From NCBI RefSeq assembly GCF_003034915.1, contig NZ_PZJX01000050.1, forward strand, positions 1 through 64,000: a stretch of DNA of 64,000 bases. Reading direction: 5' to 3'. Source of the stretch: Mesorhizobium helmanticense (GTDB lineage Bacteria; Pseudomonadota; Alphaproteobacteria; Rhizobiales; Rhizobiaceae). Each line of letters opens with the position of its first letter. Position 1 is the first letter of the stretch. Shown here piece by piece: positions 3,476 through 33,419 of the stretch. Under the pieces are notes generated by a model. The model was not told the origin of the DNA and ran no database searches. It was given only the letters and a program-made list of their open reading frames with translations. The position numbers and the translations under genes are program-made.

Positions 3476-5518
3476 TCACCCCCGCCCGTTCACCATATCT
3501 CCCACAATATCGTACTTGCCGGAAATACGCATCTTGTAGACCTCGTAATTCTCCATCACGCGCTGGACGTAACTTCTTGTTTCCGTGTAGGGAATCCGTT
3601 CGATCCAGTCGACGACGGCATCCACGTCCTTGCCGCGCGGGTCGCCGTACTTTGCCACCCACTGGGCGGCGCGGTTGGGACCGGCATTATAGCCGGCGAA
3701 GGTCAGCACATAGGAGCCGTTGAAGCGGCCGAGCTGTTCGCCGAGGAAGGCGGCGCCCAGCGTCGCATTGTAGCCGGCATCGGTGGTCAGCCGCGCCTGA
3801 GAGAAGGCCATGCCGGCCTTCTTCGCCAATTGCCTGGCGGTCCCCGGCATGAGCTGCAAGAGCCCGCGCGCGCCGGCGCTGGACACCGCGCCGATGTTGA
3901 ATTCGCTTTCCTGGCGGGCGATGGCATAGGCCAGCGCCTTGCCGGAGCCGGAAATGTTGGCGGTATCGGGAATGACGCCGAGCGGATGCGACAGCGCGCC
4001 GACGTCGATGCCGCGCGCCCCGGCGATCTTGCCGACTTTCAGCGCCAGGAAATGATTGCCCTGCTTTTCCGCCATCACGGCGAGCAGCGCCAGTTCTCCC
4101 GGACTGGTCAATTGCCCGGCAAGGTCGCGGTAAAGCGTATCGGCATAGCGCTCGTAGCCTGCCTCCTGCAGCCGCTTGATGGCGCTGACGGCCTCACGGC
4201 CGGCGAAATTGCGGCGGTCTACGGCGCTGGGCGAGGGATAGGCGATGTTGAGGGCCTGCCGGCCGACACGCTCGCCGGCGAGCTGGCCGTAGAAGGTGGT
4301 GCCGTATGTGGCGGCGCGGGCGAAATAATCCTTGGCGCTGCCGGGGCCGCCGGCTTCGGCGGCGCGGCCGAGCCAGTAATAGGCGCGCGACAGCGACATC
4401 GGCCCCTGGGCGAGATCCGCGATCCGCGCAAAATGCTTGGCGGCGGTGTCGGGGTCGTTGAGGCCGCGCAGCGCATACCAGCCGGCATGGAACTCAGCTT
4501 CCGCCGCGTTTGTGGCGCTTTCGGCGGCGTGTGACGCGACGATCTTGTAAGCGGTCTTCATGTCGCCCTGGTCGACCAGCTCGCGCGACAGCACCCGGCG
4601 CTCGACCCACCACGCGTCCGGGTCGACCAGCGCGTCGCGGTCAGCGGGCGCCCGCATCACAACCGCGGCGGCGTCGGAAAACTTCTCCTGCTTGCGCAGA
4701 TATTCGGCCTCGGCAAAGAGATAGCCGGCAGCGCGCTGCGCCGTCGGCACCGCCTTCAGCAGCTTGGCGGCGTTCTTGTCGCCCCTGGATACCGCCGCCC
4801 AGGCGTCGGCCAGCGGCTGGGTGCCCGACAGGGGCGCGACCCGCAGCGCCGAATTGACCCGGTCGGCATAAAACATGCGCTCCATGCGGAAACGATGGTC
4901 GGCAGCCGGGATGAGCTTGCCGAACTCCCTGATGATATTGGCTTCGTCCCTGGCTTCGAGCTTTTCAGTGCGCCAGAACGGCGAGAGCACCGAGAGCGCG
5001 GCCTTGGCGTTGCCCAGCGCCACGTAGGAGCGAACCAGGATCACCACGCCCTCTGGTGTCCGCGGCTGGCTGCCGCCAAAGGCCTGGACCACGACTTGAG
5101 GGGCGGGGTTCTCGCGGTAGAGCGCGCGCTCGCTGTTTTCGCGCAAGGCCATCGTGCCTGGCCAGGTCGGCAGCATCCTGGCGGCATCGGCAATGTCGCC
5201 GCTCGGCACCTGATCGCCACCATAGAGCGCGATCGCCCAGGCAAGGATATGCCGGTCGAGCGAATTGGCCGGCAGGCTCTCGCGCACCTGGCGCGCGCGG
5301 GCAATGTCGTTGGCCGCCAGTGCATCGAGGCCGCTCTTCAACCTGGCGATACCGGCCGATGGCAAGGAATCTGGCCTGTGTTGCAGGTTCGGCATCGGGA
5401 TGGCCGACGTGACCTGCACATCGACGTTGCTGCCGACGGCCACGCCCGGCACCAGCATGGCAGCGACGCCAAGCAGAGCGAAAAGGTGAGGCCGTCCGGT
5501 CGGCATGGTTTGCGTCAT
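3476..5518 (-). CDS. Soluble lytic murein transglycosylase (Slt family)
   Basis: Periplasmic enzyme that cleaves the MurNAc-GlcNAc bond of peptidoglycan with formation of the 1,6-anhydro product. It has 680 residues from the ATG at 5518, which has AGGACAGGA immediately upstream; the ORF could begin 7 codons earlier. Residues 1-30 form a signal peptide (PHLFALLGVAAMLVPGVAVGS). A long alpha-superhelical region (U/L domains) follows, then the SLT catalytic domain in the last quarter: IARQESEFN with the catalytic Glu, SSAGARGLLQLMPGTA, and GYNAGPNRAAQW. Length and order fit the Slt70 type. Confidence 0.93.
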   Translation of the reverse strand: MTQTMPTGRPHLFALLGVAAMLVPGVAVGSNVDVQVTSAIPMPNLQHRPDSLPSAGIARLKSGLDALAANDIARARQVRESLPANSLDRHILAWAIALYGGDQVPSGDIADAARMLPTWPGTMALRENSERALYRENPAPQVVVQAFGGSQPRTPEGVVILVRSYVALGNAKAALSVLSPFWRTEKLEARDEANIIREFGKLIPAADHRFRMERMFYADRVNSALRVAPLSGTQPLADAWAAVSRGDKNAAKLLKAVPTAQRAAGYLFAEAEYLRKQEKFSDAAAVVMRAPADRDALVDPDAWWVERRVLSRELVDQGDMKTAYKIVASHAAESATNAAEAEFHAGWYALRGLNDPDTAAKHFARIADLAQGPMSLSRAYYWLGRAAEAGGPGSAKDYFARAATYGTTFYGQLAGERVGRQALNIAYPSPSAVDRRNFAGREAVSAIKRLQEAGYERYADTLYRDLAGQLTSPGELALLAVMAEKQGNHFLALKVGKIAGARGIDVGALSHPLGVIPDTANISGSGKALAYAIARQESEFNIGAVSSAGARGLLQLMPGTARQLAKKAGMAFSQARLTTDAGYNATLGAAFLGEQLGRFNGSYVLTFAGYNAGPNRAAQWVAKYGDPRGKDVDAVVDWIERIPYTETRSYVQRVMENYEVYKMRISGKYDIVGDMVNGRG

Positions 5519-5637
5519 TCCTGTCCTTGCACGGACCAAAAGGCACAGATGTTCTGAAGCCTAGTCGCCCGTGGTGAAGAGCACGTAAACAAAAGCTTAT
5601 CGAGGTCGTTCAAATTGCGCTTGCTGGTTCTTGTTTA

Positions 5638-5686
5638 TGCATGTCGTTATCCCCAAAATCGGTTTCCACTTTTGGGGTGACATGCA
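5638..5686. repeat. Palindromic intergenic repeat (TGCATGTC type)
   Basis: Nested inverted repeat: outer arms TGCATGTC/GACATGCA (5638-5645, 5679-5686) and inner arms CCCCAAAA/TTTTGGGG (5651-5658, 5670-5677). A related but shorter version occurs at 28847-28881. It lies in the spacer between the divergent slt and dapA genes. Confidence 0.7.
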
Positions 5687-5804
5687 TTGACGCCATGCTT
5701 GCCGCGCAACAATGTCGAGACTATGGTGCGCCGCTTCGCTTTCGGCTAGAAGGCGCGCGACAATAAATACCAAGAACCAGAAAAGTCCCAAGGAGTTGGA
5801 CGAC

Positions 5805-6686
5805 ATGCTGAGAGGCTCGCTCACCGCGCTCGTGACACCGTTCGAAAAGAGCGGCCGTTTCGACGAGAAAGCCTTCCGTGCGTTCATCGAATGGCAACTC
5901 GGCGAGGGCACCACGGGCCTCGTCCCGGTTGGCACGACAGGCGAGTCGCCGACGCTGTCGCATGATGAGCATCGCCAAGTCGTCAAGGTCTGCATCGAGG
6001 TGGCCAAGGGCCGTGTTCCCGTCGTTGCAGGCGCCGGCTCCAACAACACCGAAGAGGCGGTCGGTCTGGTCCAGTATGCCGAGAAGGCCGGCGCCGACGC
6101 AGTACTCGTCGTCACGCCCTATTACAACAGGCCGACACAGCGCGGTCTCTATGCGCATTTCGCCGCCGTCGCGAAGGCGACGAAGCTACCGATCATCATC
6201 TACAACATCCCGCCGCGTTCTGTGGTCGACATGACGCCCGAGACGATGGGCCGGCTGGCCCACGACTTCAAGAATATCGTCGGCGTCAAGGACGCCACCG
6301 GCAAGGTCGAGCGGGTTTCCGAACAGCGCGCCACCTGCGGCAAGGATTTCATCCAGCTTTCGGGCGAGGATGCCTCGGCGCTCGGCTTCAATGCGCATGG
6401 CGGCGTCGGCTGCATCTCGGTGACGTCGAACGTCGCGCCCAGGCTCTGCGCCGAATTCCAGGAGGCGACGCTTTCCGGCGACAGCGCCAAGGCGCTGGAC
6501 TTGCAGGACCGCCTGCTGCCGCTGCACAAGGCGATCTTCCTGGAACCCGGTGTGTCGGGCGCGAAATACGCGCTGTCGAAGCTAGGCAAGGTCGAGAATG
6601 TGCTGCGTTTGCCGCTGATGACGGTCGAGTCCTCGACCGCCGAGAAGATCGATGCGGCGATGAAGCACGCCGGCTTGATTAACTAG
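5805..6686 (+). CDS. dapA: 4-hydroxy-tetrahydrodipicolinate synthase
   Basis: Condenses pyruvate with aspartate semialdehyde, the first committed step of the diaminopimelate/lysine branch, in the cytoplasm. It has 293 residues, the normal length. The start at 5805 has AAGGAG 9 bp upstream; an upstream in-frame extension has no support. The TIM-barrel motifs are intact: GTTGE (43-47), TPYYNRP (104-110), the proton-relay Tyr133 in IIYNIPP, and the Schiff-base Lys162 in VGVKDATG. smpB follows 25 bp later, the usual rhizobial arrangement. Confidence 0.97.
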
Positions 6687-6711
6687 GGATGAGGCGCCAC
6701 CTCTCCGTATC

Positions 6712-7191
6712 ATGAATCAAGTCAGAAAAGCCGATCCCAACAACAAGACCGTTGCGGAAAACCGCAAGGCGCGGTTTTCCTATGAGGTGCTCGACACGAT
6801 CGAGGCCGGCCTGGTGCTGACCGGCACCGAGGTCAAGTCGCTGCGCCAAGGGCAAGCCAACATCCAGGACAGCTACGCCTCGGTCGAAGGCGGCGAGATC
6901 TGGCTGATCAACTCCTATCTGCCCGAATATCTGCAGGCCAACCGCTTCAACCACGAGCCGCGTCGACGCCGCAAGCTGCTGCTCAACAAGCGCGAGATGG
7001 CGAAACTGTCGCAGAGTGTCGACCGCGAAGGCATGACGCTGGTGCCGCTGAAAATCTATTTCAACGACCAGGGCCGCGCCAAACTCTTGCTCGCCGTCGG
7101 CCGCGGCAAGAAGCTGCACGACAAGCGCGAGACCGAGAAACAGCGTGACTGGTCGCGTGAGAAGGGCCGGCTTCTAAAAGAGCGTGGCTAA
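6712..7191 (+). CDS. smpB: SsrA-binding protein
   Basis: tmRNA-binding protein needed for trans-translation and rescue of stalled ribosomes. It has 159 residues. Hallmarks are [31 protein letters not shown] and the C-terminal tail [14 protein letters not shown], which enters the ribosome A site. The ssrA RNA gene is not in this window. It probably shares a transcript with dapA. Confidence 0.97.
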
Positions 7192-26066: not shown

Positions 26067-26104
26067 GAGTGTCAGTGAAATTGGCCTGGTTTGGGGGAAC
26101 CGCC

Positions 26105-28846
26105 ATGTTCGAAAGCCTGATCGGCCTTGTCGCCATCATCGCGCTGTTTGTCATCATTGCGCGCCAGCAGAGCCGCATCGGCCTGATCGAGCGCGAGCTT
26201 GGCGCGCTGCGCAGCCTCGTGCTTTCGGGCGCGCCTGTGGCTCCGCCGCAGCACAAGCCGGTGGAACCGGCCGCAAACGACAGCAAGCCGGCGAACGCAG
26301 CGGCAGCAACGGTGGCCGATACTGCGTCGTCACCGAAGGACAAGGCTGCGCCAAAGCGATTGGCGAAGGCTAAGATCGGCGAGATCGAATCCGGACCCTG
26401 GACCACGGGCAAAACGGCGCCGGCCGGGTCCGCGCCGGCAGAGCCGGCCGCCGCGACGGCGAAGGCGGCTCAAAAACCCGACATCGAAACGGCGCTCGGC
26501 ACCCGCTGGGCGGTCTGGGTTGGCGGCATCGCGCTGGCACTGGGTGGCCTGTTCCTGATCCGCTACACCATCGAGGCCGGCATCTTCGGCCCAGGCGTGC
26601 GGCTAAGCATGGCCGCATTGCTCGGGCTGGTGCTGGTCGGCGGCGGCGAGTTCATCCGCCGCACTGGCTTCAGGCTGCCGGTGCAGGGCGCTGCCGGCGC
26701 ATATATTCCAGCAATCCTGACGGCGGCCGGCGCTTTCATCCTGTTCGGCACGGTCTATGCCGCGCATGGCATCTACGGCTTCATCGGCCCGGCACTGGCC
26801 TTCACGCTGCTCGGCGCCATCGGCGTGGCGACCATTGCCGCGGCTCTCGTCCACGGCCAGGCGCTGGCCGGCATAGGCCTGCTCGGCGCGATGGTAACGC
26901 CGATGCTGATTGCCTCCGAGGCGCCCAATCCCTGGGCGCTGTTCGGCTATCTCGCGATCGTGCTTGCCGCCACCGGCGTCATCGCTCGCATGCGCGACTG
27001 GACTTTCCTGATGGCGGCCGCCTTTGTCGGCACCGGTATCTGGGTCGTCCTCTTCATGACCGATGCGCCGGGCGCCAACCTGCCGGTCATCCTGTTCATC
27101 GACGCCGTCACCCTGGCCGTGCTTGCCTTCGTTTGGCTCGGCCGTCGCGGTGGCGAAACGGAACCTGACAGGGGCTTCGACTGGCCCTCGATCGCCCCTG
27201 GTTTCTTCGTCGGTCTCTCGGCCTTGGCGTTGTTCGTCGACCCGGCCTACGCTGCCGCCAGTGGAGCCCTGGCTGGAGCAGCACTGATCGCGGCCCTGGT
27301 GGCGGTGGCGCTCTACAGGCCTCGGGCGCTGGCGCTCCTGCACGCCGCCGGGCTGGTGACGGTTCTGGTCTATCTCGGCATCATTCCGCCGACCTCAGTT
27401 GCTGCCGATTTTTCAGGCGGCGCTGTCGGCGTCGACGGCCAGCCGGCGCTGATATCCGACCCGCTGATGCTCAGGATCGGCATAGGTCTCGGGCTTGTTT
27501 TCATCGGCGCGGGCTTCTGGGCCGCGCGCAGGTTCGCGGTAACCGCCTGGGTGCGATCCGCTTCATGGGCGGCATGGGGCGTCGTTGCACCGCTGGTCAT
27601 TCTGCTGGCGCTCTGGTTCACCTTCGGCAATCTCGACCGCGATCTTGTCTATGCGGCGGCCGCGGCCCTTCTGGTCGCGGGCTTCGCCTCCGGCGGCGAG
27701 TGGATCGCGCGAGGCGAGGAACCGCCGCTACAGGGTGGCGCGGCTGTCTCCTTCGCGCTCGGTGGTGCGGCGGTCGCCGGTCTGCTGATGCTGCATATGG
27801 CTTTCGGGTCCGGCTTGACCACCATTCTTCTGGGCGCCGCGGCCGTCGTGCCGGCGCTGGCCACGCGCTGGCGCGCCTATCCGGTGCTCGGCTGGATTTC
27901 GGTCGGTGCGGTCATCGCCGTGCTCGCTCGCATCGCTTTCGATCCGACAATCGTCGGCGCCCAATTCCTGTCGACGACGCCGGTGTTCAACTGGCTGCTG
28001 CCGGGATATGGCGTGCCGGCGCTCGCCTTCGGCTTCGCCGCCTGGCAGCTCGCCCGCACTACCGATGGCCGGCCACGCCTCGCCATGGAGGCGGCGGCGG
28101 CGCTGTTTGCGCTGCTGACCATCGCCATGCTGGTGCGTCACGCCATGCATGGCGGCGTCATCGACACCGGTATGGTCACGCTCGCCGAGCAGGCGATCTA
28201 TACGCTGATCGCCCTCGGCGCCGGCGCCATCCTGGTCGCCATCGACATGCGCTCGCCAAGCTCGGTGCTGCGCTACGGCTCGATTGTCGCGGGCGTGGTC
28301 TCGGTCGCCTTCATCGTCATCCAGCATTTTCTCGCGCTGAACCCACTGTTCACGGACGAATCGACCGGTCGGATCCCGGTATTCGACCTCCTGTTCCTGG
28401 CCTATCTCCTGCCGGCGGTCGCTGCCGGGGGGCTCGCGCTCTACATCAGAGACAAGCGGCCGAAATGGTATGCCGCGATGCTGGCGGTGGTGGCGGCAGT
28501 GCTCGCCTTCGCCTATGCGACGCTGTCGGTCAGGCGGCTGTTCAAGGGCGAGTTCATCGGCCTGTGGAGCGGTCTCGGCCAGCTCGAAACCTACACCTAT
28601 TCGGCGCTCTGGCTGGTCATCGGCGTGGCGCTGCTCACCGCTGGCGTCCGGCTGAAATCGCAGGCGCTGCGCATCGCATCCGCGGCGCTGATCTCGATTG
28701 CCGTGCTGAAAGTCTTCGTCTTCGACATGTCGGAGCTGGAAGGCGTGCTGCGAGCGCTGTCCTTCATCGGCCTCGGCGCCGTGCTGATCGGCATCGGCCT
28801 GTTCTACCAGCGGCTGCTGACAAGGGCGGCGAAGGAGACGACCTAA
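26105..28846 (+). CDS. DUF2339 domain polytopic membrane protein
   Basis: Very large membrane protein of 913 residues, with more than 20 hydrophobic segments over about residues 140-900. The ATG at 26105 has GGGGGAA upstream; a GTG 36 bp earlier is less likely. The first segment is MFESLIGLVAIIALFVIIAR, followed by a short coiled region and an Ala/Pro/Lys-rich linker (about 50-135), then GTRWAVWVGGIALALGGLFL, which begins the DUF2339 region. No catalytic motif was recognised. Function unknown; relatives are annotated only as DUF2339 proteins. Confidence 0.87.
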   Translation: MFESLIGLVAIIALFVIIARQQSRIGLIERELGALRSLVLSGAPVAPPQHKPVEPAANDSKPANAAAATVADTASSPKDKAAPKRLAKAKIGEIESGPWTTGKTAPAGSAPAEPAAATAKAAQKPDIETALGTRWAVWVGGIALALGGLFLIRYTIEAGIFGPGVRLSMAALLGLVLVGGGEFIRRTGFRLPVQGAAGAYIPAILTAAGAFILFGTVYAAHGIYGFIGPALAFTLLGAIGVATIAAALVHGQALAGIGLLGAMVTPMLIASEAPNPWALFGYLAIVLAATGVIARMRDWTFLMAAAFVGTGIWVVLFMTDAPGANLPVILFIDAVTLAVLAFVWLGRRGGETEPDRGFDWPSIAPGFFVGLSALALFVDPAYAAASGALAGAALIAALVAVALYRPRALALLHAAGLVTVLVYLGIIPPTSVAADFSGGAVGVDGQPALISDPLMLRIGIGLGLVFIGAGFWAARRFAVTAWVRSASWAAWGVVAPLVILLALWFTFGNLDRDLVYAAAAALLVAGFASGGEWIARGEEPPLQGGAAVSFALGGAAVAGLLMLHMAFGSGLTTILLGAAAVVPALATRWRAYPVLGWISVGAVIAVLARIAFDPTIVGAQFLSTTPVFNWLLPGYGVPALAFGFAAWQLARTTDGRPRLAMEAAAALFALLTIAMLVRHAMHGGVIDTGMVTLAEQAIYTLIALGAGAILVAIDMRSPSSVLRYGSIVAGVVSVAFIVIQHFLALNPLFTDESTGRIPVFDLLFLAYLLPAVAAGGLALYIRDKRPKWYAAMLAVVAAVLAFAYATLSVRRLFKGEFIGLWSGLGQLETYTYSALWLVIGVALLTAGVRLKSQALRIASAALISIAVLKVFVFDMSELEGVLRALSFIGLGAVLIGIGLFYQRLLTRAAKETT

Positions 28847-29092: not shown

Positions 29093-29611
29093 ATGGACGA
29101 AAAGAAGGCAGCGATCCTTGGCGAAATACCGCGGCTGCGTCGCTACGCGCGCTCCCTGCTGCGTGACCGCGATTCCGCCGATGATCTCGTTCAGGACTGC
29201 CTGGAACGGGCGCTTGTGCGGCTCGACAACTGGCAGACTGGAGAAAGCCCCAGAAGGTGGCTGTTTACGATCATGCATCATTTGTTCATCGACCAGATGC
29301 GCAAGGTCAACCGGCGCGGTGAGGCCGCCATGCTGCCGCTGGAAGCGAGCGAAGCGCAGGCAGCACCTGCCGAACAGGTGGCGGGCATCGCCTCGCGCGA
29401 GATCATCGACGCGCTGCAGGCGATCAGCCCCGACCGGCGTGCGGCACTGGTCATGGTCGCCATCGAAGGCTTTTCTTATGCCGAGGCCGCCAACATCCTC
29501 GGCGTTCCCGCCGGCACATTGATGTCGCGCATCGCGCGCGGGCGTGAGGAATTGCGCGGATTGCTGGAGGACACCGCGCGCCGCCGCTCGATAAGGATCG
29601 TCGAGAAATGA
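29093..29611 (+). CDS. ECF-type RNA polymerase sigma factor
   Basis: Alternative sigma factor of 172 residues with only regions 2 and 4. Region 2: ARSLLRDRDSADDLVQDCLE and SPRRWLFTIMHHLFIDQMRK. Region 4: RAALVMVAIEGFSYAEAAN and LGVPAGTLMSRIARGREELR, a helix-turn-helix for the -35 box. The stop overlaps the next gene, an anti-sigma factor (ATGA), so the pair is co-translated. The inducing signal is unknown. Confidence 0.94.
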   Translation: MDEKKAAILGEIPRLRRYARSLLRDRDSADDLVQDCLERALVRLDNWQTGESPRRWLFTIMHHLFIDQMRKVNRRGEAAMLPLEASEAQAAPAEQVAGIASREIIDALQAISPDRRAALVMVAIEGFSYAEAANILGVPAGTLMSRIARGREELRGLLEDTARRRSIRIVEK

Positions 29612-30399
29612 GCCGGCACGATTTTTCCGAACGCGACATCCACATGGCTCTTGATGGCGAGTTGCCGGGCGACGAGCGCACGGCGTATGACGCCTGGCTC
29701 GACGCCAATCCCGAAATGAAGGTGAAGAGCGCCCGCTATGTCGCCGACCGTGCCGCGCTCCATGCCGCGTTCGCCGGTGTGCTCGATGAGCCGGTGCCGG
29801 CGCGGTTGCAGAAAATCGTCTTCGGCGAGACGCCGGCAAGGACGGCGGGAGGGCGCTCGCGCTGGTGGCTTGCAGCCGCCGCGGCGGCGGTGCTGGCCGT
29901 TGGCGGTGTCGGTGGTTATGTCGCCGGTATCGACCGTCTGGGCCTGGAAGATCCCGTCAACGACGAACTCGCCGAGCAGGCGATCGCGGCCCATGTCATC
30001 TATGCCGCCGAAAAACGGCACGCGGTGGAAGTGCCGGCCAGCGACAAGGATCATTTGCAGACCTGGCTGTCCAACCGGGTCGGCCTGAAATTGGTCGCAC
30101 CGAATCTGGCGGCGGAAGGGTTCCAACTCGTCGGCGGCCGGCTGCTGCCTGCCGGCCATGGCAAGGCTGCGATGCTGCTCTACGAGGACGACAAGGGCGA
30201 GCGCATTTCCCTCTTCGTCACTTCCGAATCGGCCGAAAAAGCCAAGGGCACCTACGGATCGGCAGAAAACGGCCCCGAGGCTGTCTACTGGCTGGACAAG
30301 GGATATGCCTGCGCCGTCGTCGGCTCGCTGCCGCGCGCGCAACTGACCTCGGTGGCCAAGAGCGCCTACAGCCAGCTTCTGGCGGGCCTTGCCGGCTGA
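29608..30399 (+). CDS. Membrane-anchored anti-sigma factor
   Basis: 263-residue protein coupled to the ECF sigma gene. The N-terminal cytoplasmic part (about 1-85; ERDIHMALDGELPGDERTAY) fits the sigma-binding anti-sigma fold but lacks the zinc HxxxCxxC motif. One membrane segment (WWLAAAAAAVLAVGGVGGYV, about 85-107) is followed by a periplasmic domain of about 155 residues. The topology suggests envelope-stress sensing with release by proteolysis or conformational change. Confidence 0.9.
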   Translation: MSRHDFSERDIHMALDGELPGDERTAYDAWLDANPEMKVKSARYVADRAALHAAFAGVLDEPVPARLQKIVFGETPARTAGGRSRWWLAAAAAAVLAVGGVGGYVAGIDRLGLEDPVNDELAEQAIAAHVIYAAEKRHAVEVPASDKDHLQTWLSNRVGLKLVAPNLAAEGFQLVGGRLLPAGHGKAAMLLYEDDKGERISLFVTSESAEKAKGTYGSAENGPEAVYWLDKGYACAVVGSLPRAQLTSVAKSAYSQLLAGLAG

Positions 30400-30558
30400 C
30401 AGCGCCATTTCTCGAAGCCGGCGCGGCCGCCGGAATTGTCACAATTCGGCCCGAATCGAGGTGCGATAGCGCTTGACGAATGCTGGTGTTTCCGCCGGTG
30501 TGACCGATGTTTCGACCAGGGCCGTTTCCACAACCCAATCGAGGTTTTCTGAGCCCGC

Positions 30559-31656
30559 ATGCCTGCCGAGATTCGCAAGGCCCGCGCGTCCGACGTCGAT
30601 GACCTCGCCGCCATCGAGAAAGCTGTTTTCTCGAGCGACCGTATTTCCCGCCGCTCCTTTCGCCAGTTGATCGAACGCGAGACCGCCAGCATGCTTGTCG
30701 CCGAAAGCGATGGCCGCATCGCCGGCTATGCGGTCGTGCTGTTTCGCAAGGGCAGCGGCGTCGCGCGGCTCTATTCCATTGCCGTCGGTTCCTTCTTCGG
30801 TGGGTTCGGCATTGGCCGCATGCTGCTGGAGCGGGCCGAGGAGGCCGCCTTCGAGCATGACCGCATGATGCTGCGCCTCGAAGTGCGCGAGGACAACAGC
30901 CGGGCGATCCGCATCTACGAGCAGAGCGGTTACCGCAAGATCGGCCGTGAACCCGGCTATTACGAGGACGGCGCCACTGCGCTTCGCTATGAGAAGACCT
31001 TGCGCGGCGACATTCCGGTCGCCACCAGGGTGCCGTTCTATCAGCAGACCTGCGAATTCACCTGCGGCCCGTGCTGCCTGATGATGGCGATGGCCAATTT
31101 CGATCCCGGCTTCGTGCCTGATCCGGTCATGGAAATCCGCCTGTGGCGCGAAGCGACCACCGTTTTCATGATGTCGGGGCCGGGCGGCTGCGAACCGTTC
31201 GGCCTCGCCGTCGCCGGCCATGAAGCCGGGCTCTCGGCGGAGATCTACGTGTCCTTCTATGGCGCGCTGTTCCTGCAGTCGGTGCGCAGCCAGGACAAAC
31301 GTCGGGTCATGGAACTGGCGCAGGTCGACTTTCGCCGGCGCGCGGAACTTTACGGCATCCCGGTGAATTACCGTCCATTCGCCATCGACGATATCCGCGC
31401 CGCCATCGCCGAAGGCAAACTGGTGCTGGTCCTGATCAGCGGCTTCCTGATGTTCGGTAAGAAAGTGCCGCATTGGGTGCTGGCCATCGGCGACGATGGC
31501 GACCATATCCTGATCCATGATCCCTGGGTCGAGGACGAGAGGCAGGAGACCATCCTTGATGCCGCCAACATTCCCGTGCCTTACGGCATCTTCATGAACA
31601 TGGCGCAGTTCGGCCGCGACGGACTGCGTGCCGCCATCACGCTAGGAAAGCGCTGA
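30559..31656 (+). CDS. GNAT acetyltransferase fused to C39-type cysteine peptidase
   Basis: 365-residue two-domain protein. Residues 1-150 form a GNAT N-acetyltransferase: YSIAVGSFFGGFGIGRMLL includes the acetyl-CoA loop, and EDNSRAIRIYEQSGYRKIGR is the C-terminal motif. Residues about 158-365 form a papain-like C39 domain: Gln163 and nucleophile Cys169 in QQTCEFTCGPCC, His305 in VPHWVLAIGD and Asp321 in ILIHDPW. No membrane segment or ABC transporter is fused or adjacent, so bacteriocin export is unlikely. The RimK-like ATP-grasp gene follows 5 bp later. This combination has been noted in comparative work on amidoligases as a predicted peptide-modification system; the actual substrate is unknown. 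Confidence 0.9.
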   Translation: MPAEIRKARASDVDDLAAIEKAVFSSDRISRRSFRQLIERETASMLVAESDGRIAGYAVVLFRKGSGVARLYSIAVGSFFGGFGIGRMLLERAEEAAFEHDRMMLRLEVREDNSRAIRIYEQSGYRKIGREPGYYEDGATALRYEKTLRGDIPVATRVPFYQQTCEFTCGPCCLMMAMANFDPGFVPDPVMEIRLWREATTVFMMSGPGGCEPFGLAVAGHEAGLSAEIYVSFYGALFLQSVRSQDKRRVMELAQVDFRRRAELYGIPVNYRPFAIDDIRAAIAEGKLVLVLISGFLMFGKKVPHWVLAIGDDGDHILIHDPWVEDERQETILDAANIPVPYGIFMNMAQFGRDGLRAAITLGKR

Positions 31657-31661
31657 AGACA

Positions 31662-33125
31662 ATGACCTGGGTCATCCTCACCGGCCGGCAGAACGATCTC
31701 GACCAGGTGGCGACGCCGCACAAGATCATCACCAACCGCGACTATCTTGCGCATCCGGCGCTGTTTCGCGGCCAGCGGCCGAAGGTCATCAACCTGTCGA
31801 ACAATTACGGCTATCAGAGCCGTGGCTATTATGCCTCGCTGCTCGCCGGCTCACGCGGCCACAAGGTCATCCCGACGGTCGAGACGATGATCGACCTGTC
31901 GGAGCGCAAGCTCTACGAGCATGCGCTGCCCGAACTCGAGCTCGCGCTCAACAAATGCCGCAAGGATCTCGGCGGCGCCTTTCCGCAGAAGGTCTGCATC
32001 TTCTTCGGCATCGGCCCGTCGAAAGTATGGGATCGATTCGCCAAGCTCCTGTTCGACTGGTTCCGGGCGCCGGCGCTGGAGGTCCACATCAAGGACAGCG
32101 CTGAATGGGCGGCGATCCGCAAGATCGGCTTCCATCCGCTGATCCGGATGACCGACGAGGAAAAAGAGCACTTCCTGCGGTGCCTCGAGACCTACACCAA
32201 CCGCGAGTGGCGCGATACCAAGGGCCGCACGCCGGCGCGCTACACCTTCGCCACGCTGGTCGATCCGCATGAGGAACTGCCGCCGTCGGAGATTTCGTCG
32301 CTTCGCTATTGGGCCAAGATCGCCGAGAAAATGGGCGTCGAAATCGAGCCAATCACCAAGAAGGATCTGGCCAAGCTCGCCAATTACGACGCGCTGTTCA
32401 TCCGCGAGACCACCTCGATTTCCAACCACACCTACCGCTTCGCCCGCCGCGCCCAGCAGGAAGGCATGCCGGTCATCGACGACCCGCTGTCGATGATCCG
32501 CTGCACCAACAAGGTCTATCTCAACGAGCTGATGACCTACAACAAGGTGCCGGTGCCGCCGACGGTGATGATCGCCGGCATTTCGGATCTCGAATTGGCG
32601 GCGCAGACGCTGGGTTTCCCGCTGGTGCTGAAGATCCCGGACTCGTCATTTTCGCGCGGTGTGAAGAAATGCGAGACCTTCGAGGAACTGAAGACGCTGG
32701 CCACCGAATGGCTGGAGGATTCCGACCTTTTGATCGCACAAAAATTCATTCCGACCGAGTATGATTGGCGTGTTGGCGTGCTTGGCGGCCAGCCCTTGTT
32801 TGCCGTGCATTATCTGATGGCCAAGAAGCACTGGCAGATCGTCAACCACAAGGCCAACGGCAAGCCCGACCAGGGCGGCATCAAGACCTTCACGCTGAAG
32901 GAGGCGCCGGCCCATGTCGTCGAGACGGCCGTGCGGGCGGCGCGTTGCATTGGTGATGGCCTCTATGGCGTCGACCTCAAGGAGACCAGGGACGGCGTCT
33001 TCGTCATCGAGGTCAACGACAATCCCAACCTCGACCATGGCTGGGAGGATTCCGGCGAAAAGGACGAGGTCTGGGTGCGGCTGACGCAGTGGTTCCTGGA
33101 GCGGCTCGACCGGCCGGGGCGATAA
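31662..33125 (+). CDS. RimK-like ATP-grasp ligase with RLAN-type N-terminal domain
   Basis: 487-residue predicted amidoligase. Residues about 1-150 (VILTGRQNDLDQVATPHKII, INLSNNYGYQSRGYYASLLA) match the RLAN domain found before RimK-like ATP-grasp modules. The ATP-grasp region spans about 280-480: PVPPTVMIAGISDL, the ATP-binding LGFPLVLKIPDSSFSRGVKK, IAQKFIPTEYDWRVGVLGG, and VFVIEVNDNPNLDHG with the metal-binding Glu and Asn. By family it forms an amide bond between a carboxylate and an amine or amino acid with ATP; RimK itself adds glutamate to ribosomal protein S6. The preceding GNAT/peptidase fusion and the following DUF3303 gene are co-oriented and closely spaced. Confidence 0.92.
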   Translation: MTWVILTGRQNDLDQVATPHKIITNRDYLAHPALFRGQRPKVINLSNNYGYQSRGYYASLLAGSRGHKVIPTVETMIDLSERKLYEHALPELELALNKCRKDLGGAFPQKVCIFFGIGPSKVWDRFAKLLFDWFRAPALEVHIKDSAEWAAIRKIGFHPLIRMTDEEKEHFLRCLETYTNREWRDTKGRTPARYTFATLVDPHEELPPSEISSLRYWAKIAEKMGVEIEPITKKDLAKLANYDALFIRETTSISNHTYRFARRAQQEGMPVIDDPLSMIRCTNKVYLNELMTYNKVPVPPTVMIAGISDLELAAQTLGFPLVLKIPDSSFSRGVKKCETFEELKTLATEWLEDSDLLIAQKFIPTEYDWRVGVLGGQPLFAVHYLMAKKHWQIVNHKANGKPDQGGIKTFTLKEAPAHVVETAVRAARCIGDGLYGVDLKETRDGVFVIEVNDNPNLDHGWEDSGEKDEVWVRLTQWFLERLDRPGR

Positions 33126-33146
33126 TCATCCGAATAGGGGGCAGCG

Positions 33147-33419
33147 ATGCTGTTTTTCGTGACCGAGGATTTTCACGGCTGTGACCGCAAGGAGATCTAC
33201 CGCCGCCTCCGCGACCAGGGCCGCCTGAAGCCGGACGCGCTTCTCGTGCACCACAGCTGGATCGCGGCGGATATGAGCCGCTGCTTCCTGCTGGTGGAGG
33301 CCGACGACGTCACGCTATTGCAGCGCTGGGTCATCGAATGGGCGGATCTGGTCGAATTCGAAATCGTTCCCGTGGCGACGAACAAGGACATGGTGGAAGC
33401 GTTGAGCGGACATCTCTGA
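33147..33419 (+). CDS. DUF3303 domain small protein
   Basis: 90-residue protein with the ferredoxin-like DUF3303 pattern: MLFFVTEDF, PDALLVHHSWIAADMSRCFL and WADLVEFEIVPV. GGGGGCAGCG precedes the ATG, 21 bp after the ATP-grasp stop, so it is the third gene of the cassette. Function unknown; the fold type often binds small ligands or dimerises. Confidence 0.87.
   Translation: MLFFVTEDFHGCDRKEIYRRLRDQGRLKPDALLVHHSWIAADMSRCFLLVEADDVTLLQRWVIEWADLVEFEIVPVATNKDMVEALSGHL

What the first reader, a model, noticed from the sequence alone, without database searches (positions are those of the whole stretch)
30559..33419. GNAT/C39-peptidase fusion, RLAN ATP-grasp ligase and DUF3303 cassette: a possible peptide-modifying system
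Three close, co-oriented genes join an acetyltransferase, a papain-like peptidase with an intact catalytic triad (Cys169, His305, Asp321), and a RimK-like amide ligase with a complete ATP-grasp site. Acetylation, proteolysis and amide ligation in one operon suggests building or trimming of a peptide or a peptide tag. A related association was predicted in comparative studies of amidoligases, but the substrate is not established as far as I know. No transporter or obvious precursor-peptide gene adjoins; DUF3303 could be a carrier, sensor or substrate-binding partner.
Basis: partly seen in the sequence, partly recalled or inferred. Interest (0 to 1): 0.65.

Follow-up and report, generated by a model that had tools for sequence, protein, structure and literature searches.

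The report
Acetyltransferase, peptidase and amide-ligase gene cassette
Three neighbouring genes in a nitrogen-fixing soil bacterium encode enzymes that probably put an acetyl cap on an amino acid or short peptide, join it to a second building block, and cut it again; the core pair is widespread and was predicted before, but what it makes is not known from the papers searched.

Summary
In a Mesorhizobium-like genome, 30559-33419 encodes a GNAT-DUF3335 (C39, papain-like) fusion, an RLAN-RimK-like ATP-grasp ligase and a DUF3303 protein, co-oriented with gaps of 5 and 21 bp. Peptidase and ligase active sites are conserved. RLAN occurs in 72 of 398 genomes of the phylum; 57 of these also have DUF3335.

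Three results change the reading. (1) The core is GNAT plus ligase: of 113 ligases, 76 have GNAT-C39 nearby, 21 GNAT alone, 12 GCS2, 4 neither. (2) The 12 GCS2 ligases (11 with an N-formylglutamate-amidohydrolase-like gene, 10 with a separate C39-type peptidase) lie in one nested clade: GNAT was apparently replaced once by a gamma-glutamyl-type amine ligase. (3) Four phage-like contigs carry a bare GNAT+ligase pair without RLAN or C39. DUF3303 looks accessory.

Most likely it makes an N-acylated dipeptide-like product: GNAT (or GCS2) caps an amine, the ligase forms an amide, C39 trims or recycles. N-acetylglutaminylglutamine-amide synthesis works similarly, but sequence tests exclude membership. 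Protein modification remains a serious rival. The cassette is a new member of a predicted, uncharacterised kind.

The parts
30559..31002 (+). GNAT acetyltransferase domain (aa 1-148) of gene A, RimI/Ard1-like
   Evidence: Pfam PF00583/PF13673; TIGR01575 RimI 81 bits, cut-off 86.4; Foldseek best matches 9mto (RimI-type by the name) and Ard1 4pv6
31030..31644 (+). DUF3335 / C39-like papain-fold peptidase domain (aa 158-362) of gene A; Cys169, His305, Asp321
   Evidence: PF11814 4.6e-76; triad conservation
30559..31656 (+). gene A: GNAT-C39 fusion, 365 aa
31737..32177 (+). RLAN domain (aa 26-172) of gene B
   Evidence: PF14401; fold not resolved (pLDDT under 50 in aa 72-97, 107-163 and 175-191)
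32508..33038 (+). RimK-like ATP-grasp domain (aa 283-459) of gene B
   Evidence: PF08443; Ddl, ArgX, LysX and RimK fold matches; unchanged K284, K324, D438, E450, N452
31662..33125 (+). gene B: RLAN-ATP-grasp amide ligase, 487 aa
33147..33419 (+). gene C: DUF3303 protein, 90 aa; accessory, seen beside the cassette only in Mesorhizobium-type loci
   Evidence: PF11746; present in 72 of 80 loci, otherwise only in L214 of 117 loci
30437..30452 (+). conserved upstream element of unknown role, 106 bp before gene A; one copy in the genome at up to 1 mismatch
   Evidence: alignment of 13 upstream regions (window and 12 loci), present with at most 1 mismatch in 10 (read by eye); genome search
29093..30399 (+). 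context only: ECF sigma factor (29093-29611) and likely anti-sigma factor (29608-30399) upstream on the same strand
   Evidence: anti-sigma by weak NCBIfam matches under the cut-off

Best explanation
The cassette is an N-acyl-amide (dipeptide-like) biosynthesis and turnover unit. Step 1 (inferred): the GNAT domain acetylates the amine of an amino acid or short peptide. Step 2 (chemistry inferred from an intact site): the RLAN-ATP-grasp ligase activates a carboxylate as an acyl-phosphate with ATP and joins it to an amine, giving an N-acetylated dipeptide or amide. Step 3 (inferred): the C39 cysteine hydrolase trims, transfers or recycles the product. Shown by comparison: GNAT+ligase is the commonest minimum; the loci with GCS2 instead of GNAT lie in one clade, and GCS2 is an enzyme class that acylates amines with gamma-glutamate (established knowledge); a C39-type enzyme is kept as a separate gene in most of that clade. 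So an exchangeable N-acyl cap (acetyl or gamma-glutamyl) plus one amide bond is the simplest common logic. The building blocks are unknown.
For: Active sites of peptidase and ligase are conserved. Partners within 1500 bp in 113 ligases: GNAT-C39 76, GNAT 21, GCS2 12, neither 4, both GNAT and GCS2 0; GCS2 versus GNAT needs one change on the tree (3 if the one 'neither' row and the one viral row inside the clade are counted as other). GCS2-type loci carry FGase (11 of 12), and 10 of the 12, plus L274, a C39_2 peptidase homologous to DUF3335 (hhalign probability 96.9, E 1.8e-10). One locus fuses GNAT to RLAN-ATP-grasp (L165, 659 aa); from recall and the positions matched, NAGGN synthetase has the same order, GNAT before ATP-grasp. 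Other hydrolase families recur beside the core: DUF2817 in 10 loci, an M20 family in 11 and an M14 family in 5 (one member of each checked). The ligase fold is nearest to Ddl, ArgX/LysX and RimK, all carboxylate-amine ligases. Precedent: Ngg does both the N-acetylation and the peptide bond of NAGGN, in an operon with an aminopeptidase gene (passages of PMC8070244).
Against: No substrate or product is identified. The GNAT is closest in sequence and fold to RimI/Ard1 protein N-terminal acetyltransferases, which points to protein substrates as much as to metabolites. Phage pairs are hard to explain by an ordinary metabolite such as an osmolyte. The window's GNAT lacks the consensus Arg/Gln at position 81. 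The M20 and ArgA-like neighbours may be conserved gene order among related lineages. The RLAN fold is unresolved. The C39 domain could be a transferase rather than a hydrolase. Four of 113 ligases have no partner in reach.
Confidence: 0.45

Rival explanations
1. Protein modification: the RimI-like GNAT and RimK-like ligase act on the termini of one protein or complex (for example ribosomal proteins, as RimI and RimK act on S18 and S6), and C39 reverses the ligation.
For: GNAT close to RimI (81 bits against a cut-off of 86.4) and to RimI/Ard1 folds; ligase close to RimK folds; four phage-like contigs carry the bare pair, and PMC7824862 (passages) proposes that jumbo-phage GNATs related to ribosomal-protein GNATs, and ATP-grasp ligases of the R2K family, modify host proteins; the rim and rlo operons pair an ATP-grasp enzyme with a protease (passages of PMC12239564).
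Against: A GCS2+FGase partner set fits small molecules better. Canonical RimK is not replaced: 53 of 72 RLAN genomes also have a strong RimK match (best E 2e-97 or below; hand count from the tables, and the bits of the weakest, G358, are not listed), against 147 of 398 over the cut-off in the whole sample. I recognised no ribosomal protein by eye among the 30 neighbour clusters printed.
Confidence: 0.28
2. Ribosomally made peptide (RiPP or graspetide-like) maturation: the ligase cyclises or extends a precursor, C39 removes its leader, GNAT caps it.
For: C39 peptidases remove leaders during export (passage of PMC10318531) and ATP-grasp ligases make graspetides (abstract start of PMC8939145 in the listing).
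Against: No widely conserved ORF of 20-90 aa within 500 bp of the core (largest cluster 6 of 117 loci). No transporter family at a fixed close position: one ABC-ATPase cluster appears in 8 loci at scattered distances (469 to over 4000 bp).
Confidence: 0.07
3. Salvage or detoxification: GNAT and C39 process foreign or damaged amino acids or peptides, and the ligase builds them into a storage or disposal form.
For: Recurrent peptidase-family neighbours; C39 is lost or gained often (14 changes between fused and GNAT-only on this tree).
Against: GNAT and ligase go together (97 of 113) more often than the ligase goes with a GNAT-fused C39 (76 of 113); nothing ties the cassette to a particular compound.
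Confidence: 0.15
4. Chance adjacency or annotation artefact.
For: None.
Against: A GNAT lies within 1500 bp in 97 of 113 ligase loci examined.
Confidence: 0.01

Closest known systems
RLAN-ATP-grasp with GNAT-papain-like peptidase gene neighbourhood (Iyer et al. 2009, Pfam RLAN and DUF3335)
   Same: Same domains and adjacency; this locus is a member. PMC10318531 (passage) states that DUF3335 is often fused to GNAT and cites Iyer 2009.
   Different: DUF3303 added in Mesorhizobium-type loci. The single GNAT-to-GCS2 swap and the RLAN-less phage pair were not seen in the listings and passages I got from the held papers. Iyer 2009 itself is not held, and I recall, from no call, that the Pfam text already mentions GNAT-papain and GCS2 neighbours.
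NAGGN (N-acetylglutaminylglutamine amide) operon asnO-ngg-peptidase
   Same: N-acetylation plus peptide-bond formation plus a peptidase gene in one operon (passages of PMC8070244)
   Different: Different peptidase and an amidotransferase there; the RLAN of gene B is not part of it as far as I recall; sequence far below the TIGR03103 cut-off
rimABK and rlo operons of Pseudomonas
   Same: RimK-like ATP-grasp enzyme paired with a protease (passages of PMC12239564)
   Different: Retropepsin-like proteases and, in rlo, an inactive transglutaminase membrane protein; neither is among the eight window proteins scanned
ArgX/LysX and glutathione-type two-ligase pathways
   Same: ArgX/LysX are among the nearest folds, with RimK and Ddl; GCS2+ATP-grasp in the swapped clade recalls glutathione-type logic
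   Different: No LysW carrier was sought; gene B is under the LysX cut-off (84.3 against 275.6 bits)

Membership tests
RLAN-ATP-grasp / GNAT-papain-like cassette | RLAN domain over its cut-off, fused to an ATP-grasp domain | tested here: met
   125.9 bits against 25; RimK 37.5 against 21
RLAN-ATP-grasp / GNAT-papain-like cassette | adjacent GNAT, usually fused to DUF3335 with an intact triad | tested here: met
RLAN-ATP-grasp / GNAT-papain-like cassette | intact ATP-grasp catalytic residues | tested here: met
   unchanged in 113 of 113 rows
NAGGN synthetase (TIGR03103) | score over the equivalog cut-off | tested here: not met
   gene A 17.8 bits against 569, no match listed for gene B at E 0.01; no match over cut-off in the whole genome, best 23.2 bits
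RimK, S6 glutamate ligase | score over NF007764 / TIGR00768 cut-offs | tested here: not met
   26.3 against 331 and 83.8 against 143.4 bits
RimI, S18-alanine acetyltransferase | score over TIGR01575 cut-off | tested here: not met
   81 against 86.4 bits, a narrow miss; substrate not testable here
graspetide or other RiPP cluster | conserved precursor-peptide gene | tested here: inconclusive
   no widely conserved 20-90 aa ORF within 500 bp of the core (largest cluster 6 of 117 loci); very short or divergent peptides could be missed
rlo operon | inactive transglutaminase membrane protein and retropepsin-like protease next to the ATP-grasp gene | tested here: not met
   neither among the eight window proteins around and in the cassette scanned by Pfam
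N-acyl dipeptide synthesis | product identified | not testable with these tools
   needs biochemistry

The most novel reading that the evidence does not exclude
A widespread, undescribed pathway in which an exchangeable N-acyl cap (acetyl from GNAT, or gamma-glutamyl from GCS2 after one evolutionary swap) marks an amine before one conserved ligase forms an amide, giving an unknown metabolite or tag; some phages carry the stripped two-enzyme version to make or mimic it during infection.
Probability: 0.25. Interest if true: 0.75.

Novelty: new member of a known kind. Interest (0 to 1): 0.5.

Why it matters
RLAN ligases occur in 72 of 398 sampled genomes of the phylum and in 81 of 369 genomes of one further class sample, yet I found no product in the papers I could search. 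The partner swap gives a handle: both versions should give products that share the ligated part and differ in the cap, so comparative metabolomics of a GNAT-type and a GCS2-type organism could identify it. The phage pair offers a minimal two-enzyme system to express and assay. If the product is a metabolite, it would be a common but overlooked N-acylated peptide; if it is a protein mark, a new bacterial modification.

Tried and rejected
Tried with little result. The genome-contig scan kept the best 80 of 310 relatives, nearly all titled Mesorhizobium, so wider sampling was done with the genome search. Structure prediction from the permitted shallow alignments resolved the ATP-grasp part of B and the GNAT part of A, but not RLAN nor C39, so no structural claim is made for those two. 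A viral scan for the C39 alignment found no relative. The conserved upstream sequence looked like a possible shared operator but occurs once in the genome and is missing in 3 of 13 aligned regions, so no regulon is claimed. A paper search for DUF3335, DUF3303 and RLAN terms gave one paper.

Considered and rejected: membership of NAGGN synthetase; replacement of canonical RimK (53 of 72 RLAN genomes have both; tables); DUF3303 as a core part; chance adjacency. A RiPP precursor is unsupported, not excluded.

Rows dropped and limits. The tree used 113 cellular ligases: the window plus 112 loci, mostly chosen by me as about one per genus from the 72 hits, six hits, the 81 hits (60 regions fetched), and three plasmid loci; five of the 117 loci hold no ligase match and were left out (L169, L181, L201, L207, L208). 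Seven of the nine viral loci were added (not L285, which looks the same as L284, nor the fragment L290). The tree is a 'quick' one with SH-aLRT support only and a midpoint root; the GCS2 clade (14 rows: 12 GCS2, 1 'neither', 1 viral) has 100 and the wider clade that holds it 93; several viral rows are long branches. Partner labels use a 1500-bp limit, so 'neither' can mean 'elsewhere': G248 has a GNAT-C39 on another contig. ArgA, M14 and M20 names were checked by Pfam for one member each. Some of the 108 GNAT rows are ArgA-like proteins. ORFs in scripts start at the first possible start codon, so some are too long. The class of the sample is unnamed; I take it to be Gammaproteobacteria because the ligases of its centre's family group with that of a Pseudomonas aeruginosa plasmid.
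Full report
What is there. The window lies in a 6.88-Mb genome whose nearest named relatives are Mesorhizobium (99% identity of gene B's protein to STM 4661 and M. metallidurans). Three + strand ORFs at 30559-31656, 31662-33125 and 33147-33419 encode a GNAT-DUF3335 fusion, an RLAN-RimK-like ATP-grasp protein and a DUF3303 protein. Upstream on the same strand are an ECF sigma factor and a likely anti-sigma factor; downstream are a LysR gene on the other strand and a fatty-acid desaturase.

Is it more than chance? RLAN is in 72 of 398 sampled genomes of the phylum, in 81 of 369 genomes of the class of genome G116 (probably Gammaproteobacteria; a few genomes are in both samples) and in 39 of 61 near and order-level relatives, the window's own genome counted. 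DUF3335 is in 58 of the same 398, and 57 of those 58 are RLAN genomes (my comparison of the two tables; G068 is the exception). The 14 control genomes hold no RLAN; one, Methanosarcina acetivorans, holds DUF3335.

Active sites. In 81 aligned C39 domains Cys169 and His305 never change, and position 321 is Asp (74) or Glu (7). In 113 ligases K284, K324, D438, E450 and N452 never change. In 108 GNAT rows the acetyl-CoA loop position 81 is R in 83 and Q in 12; the window has G (all). The model of B (pLDDT 78-97 in most ten-residue blocks from aa 191 to 480, 69 in one) matches Ddl, ArgX, LysX and RimK; the model of A matches RimI and Ard1 acetyltransferases over its GNAT part. RLAN and C39 were not resolved.

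Anatomy across species. I read 117 loci (parsed). With the window, 113 ligases could be labelled by neighbours within 1500 bp: 76 GNAT-C39, 21 GNAT alone, 12 GCS2, 4 neither, none with both GNAT and GCS2. DUF3303 appears only in L214, a genome of the window's own genus; among the 80 loci it follows the ligase in 72. In one locus GNAT is fused in front of RLAN-ATP-grasp. Recurrent extra neighbours are hydrolase families and one RMND1-type protein: DUF2817 in 10 loci and DUF155 in 13 (Pfam), an M20 family in 11, an M14 family in 5 (one member of each checked). An ABC-ATPase cluster appears in 8 loci at scattered distances.

The swap. The 12 GCS2 ligases fall in one clade of 14 rows (support 100), nested among GNAT-C39 ligases (support 93 for the wider clade). 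GNAT versus GCS2 needs one change on the tree when the clade's 'neither' row and viral row are not counted, three when they count as other. Eleven of the 12 have an FGase-family gene. Ten of the 12, plus L274, have an adjacent separate C39_2 peptidase that is homologous to DUF3335 by profile comparison, with the catalytic Cys, His and Asp regions aligned. So the ligase and the C39 activity stayed while the amine-acylating enzyme was exchanged.

Phage versions. Nine viral-collection loci encode relatives of the ligase. Seven match only from query residue 187 or later, so without RLAN; L290 is a fragment at a contig end; L291 matches residues 1-482 with a large internal gap (a 386-aa ORF). In four (L286-L289) a GNAT ORF lies immediately upstream and overlaps the ligase ORF. 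Phage-type genes stand nearby: baseplate and integrase (L286), terminase and portal (L284), integrase (L288), replication protein (L289), ssDNA annealing protein (L287). None of the nine loci gave a DUF3335-type, GCS2 or FGase match. Among isolate phages only weaker ligase relatives covering under 80% of the query were found.

How it probably works. The unit that evolution keeps most often is an amine acylator plus a carboxylate-amine ligase; the fused C39 comes and goes (14 changes between GNAT-C39 and GNAT alone on this tree). The nearest worked example is NAGGN synthesis, where one protein acetylates glutamine and forms the peptide bond, next to a peptidase gene (passages of PMC8070244). 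I therefore favour an N-acylated dipeptide or amide, with C39 as trimming or recycling enzyme. The RimI-like GNAT and the phage pairs keep protein modification alive. Canonical RimK is not replaced: 53 of the 72 RLAN genomes also show a strong RimK match (hand count from the tables), against 147 of 398 over the cut-off in all, while the window's own genome has no RimK-family match over the cut-off and its best one is gene B itself.

What is known. The fusion of DUF3335 to GNAT is in print (PMC10318531, passage), citing Iyer et al. 2009, which is not held. PMC4431377 (passages) describes linked ATP-grasp and GNAT genes in another ATP-grasp clade and proposes peptide ligation capped by an acyl group. 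Eight searches showed me no functional study of this cassette; I saw listings, and passages of five papers. The library holds open-licence papers only. From memory, not from a call, Pfam's RLAN text already mentions GNAT-papain and GCS2 neighbours.

Verdict. DUF3303 should be dropped from the core. The informative newer pieces are the single GNAT-to-GCS2 exchange and the phage minimal pair.

Noticed in passing
window 30437-30452: A sequence present with at most one mismatch in 10 of 13 aligned upstream regions, found once in the whole genome at up to one mismatch; possible promoter or operator, lying between an anti-sigma gene and gene A.
   Followed up: partly
L286-L289, around 5493-6906: Phage-like contigs with a GNAT ORF overlapping an RLAN-less ATP-grasp ligase ORF.
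   Followed up: partly
L284, 4469-9396: A ligase relative (5977-6912) sits between a terminase large subunit and a portal gene on a phage contig.
   Followed up: no
L207 and L208: Extra DUF3335 copies in two genomes of the window's genus (G252, G328) without a nearby RLAN ligase and with a weak or undetected GNAT part.
   Followed up: no
L169, L185, L189, L211, L212, L223, L239, L271 and others: A DUF155/RMND1-family gene recurs near the cassette in 13 of 117 loci.
   Followed up: no
L292, 5638-7059: Yersinia phage YerA41 has a weak ligase relative annotated as a structural protein, with a LysW-like note on a gene about 4 kb away.
   Followed up: no
window 26069-28846: Large DUF2339 predicted membrane protein upstream.
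   Followed up: no
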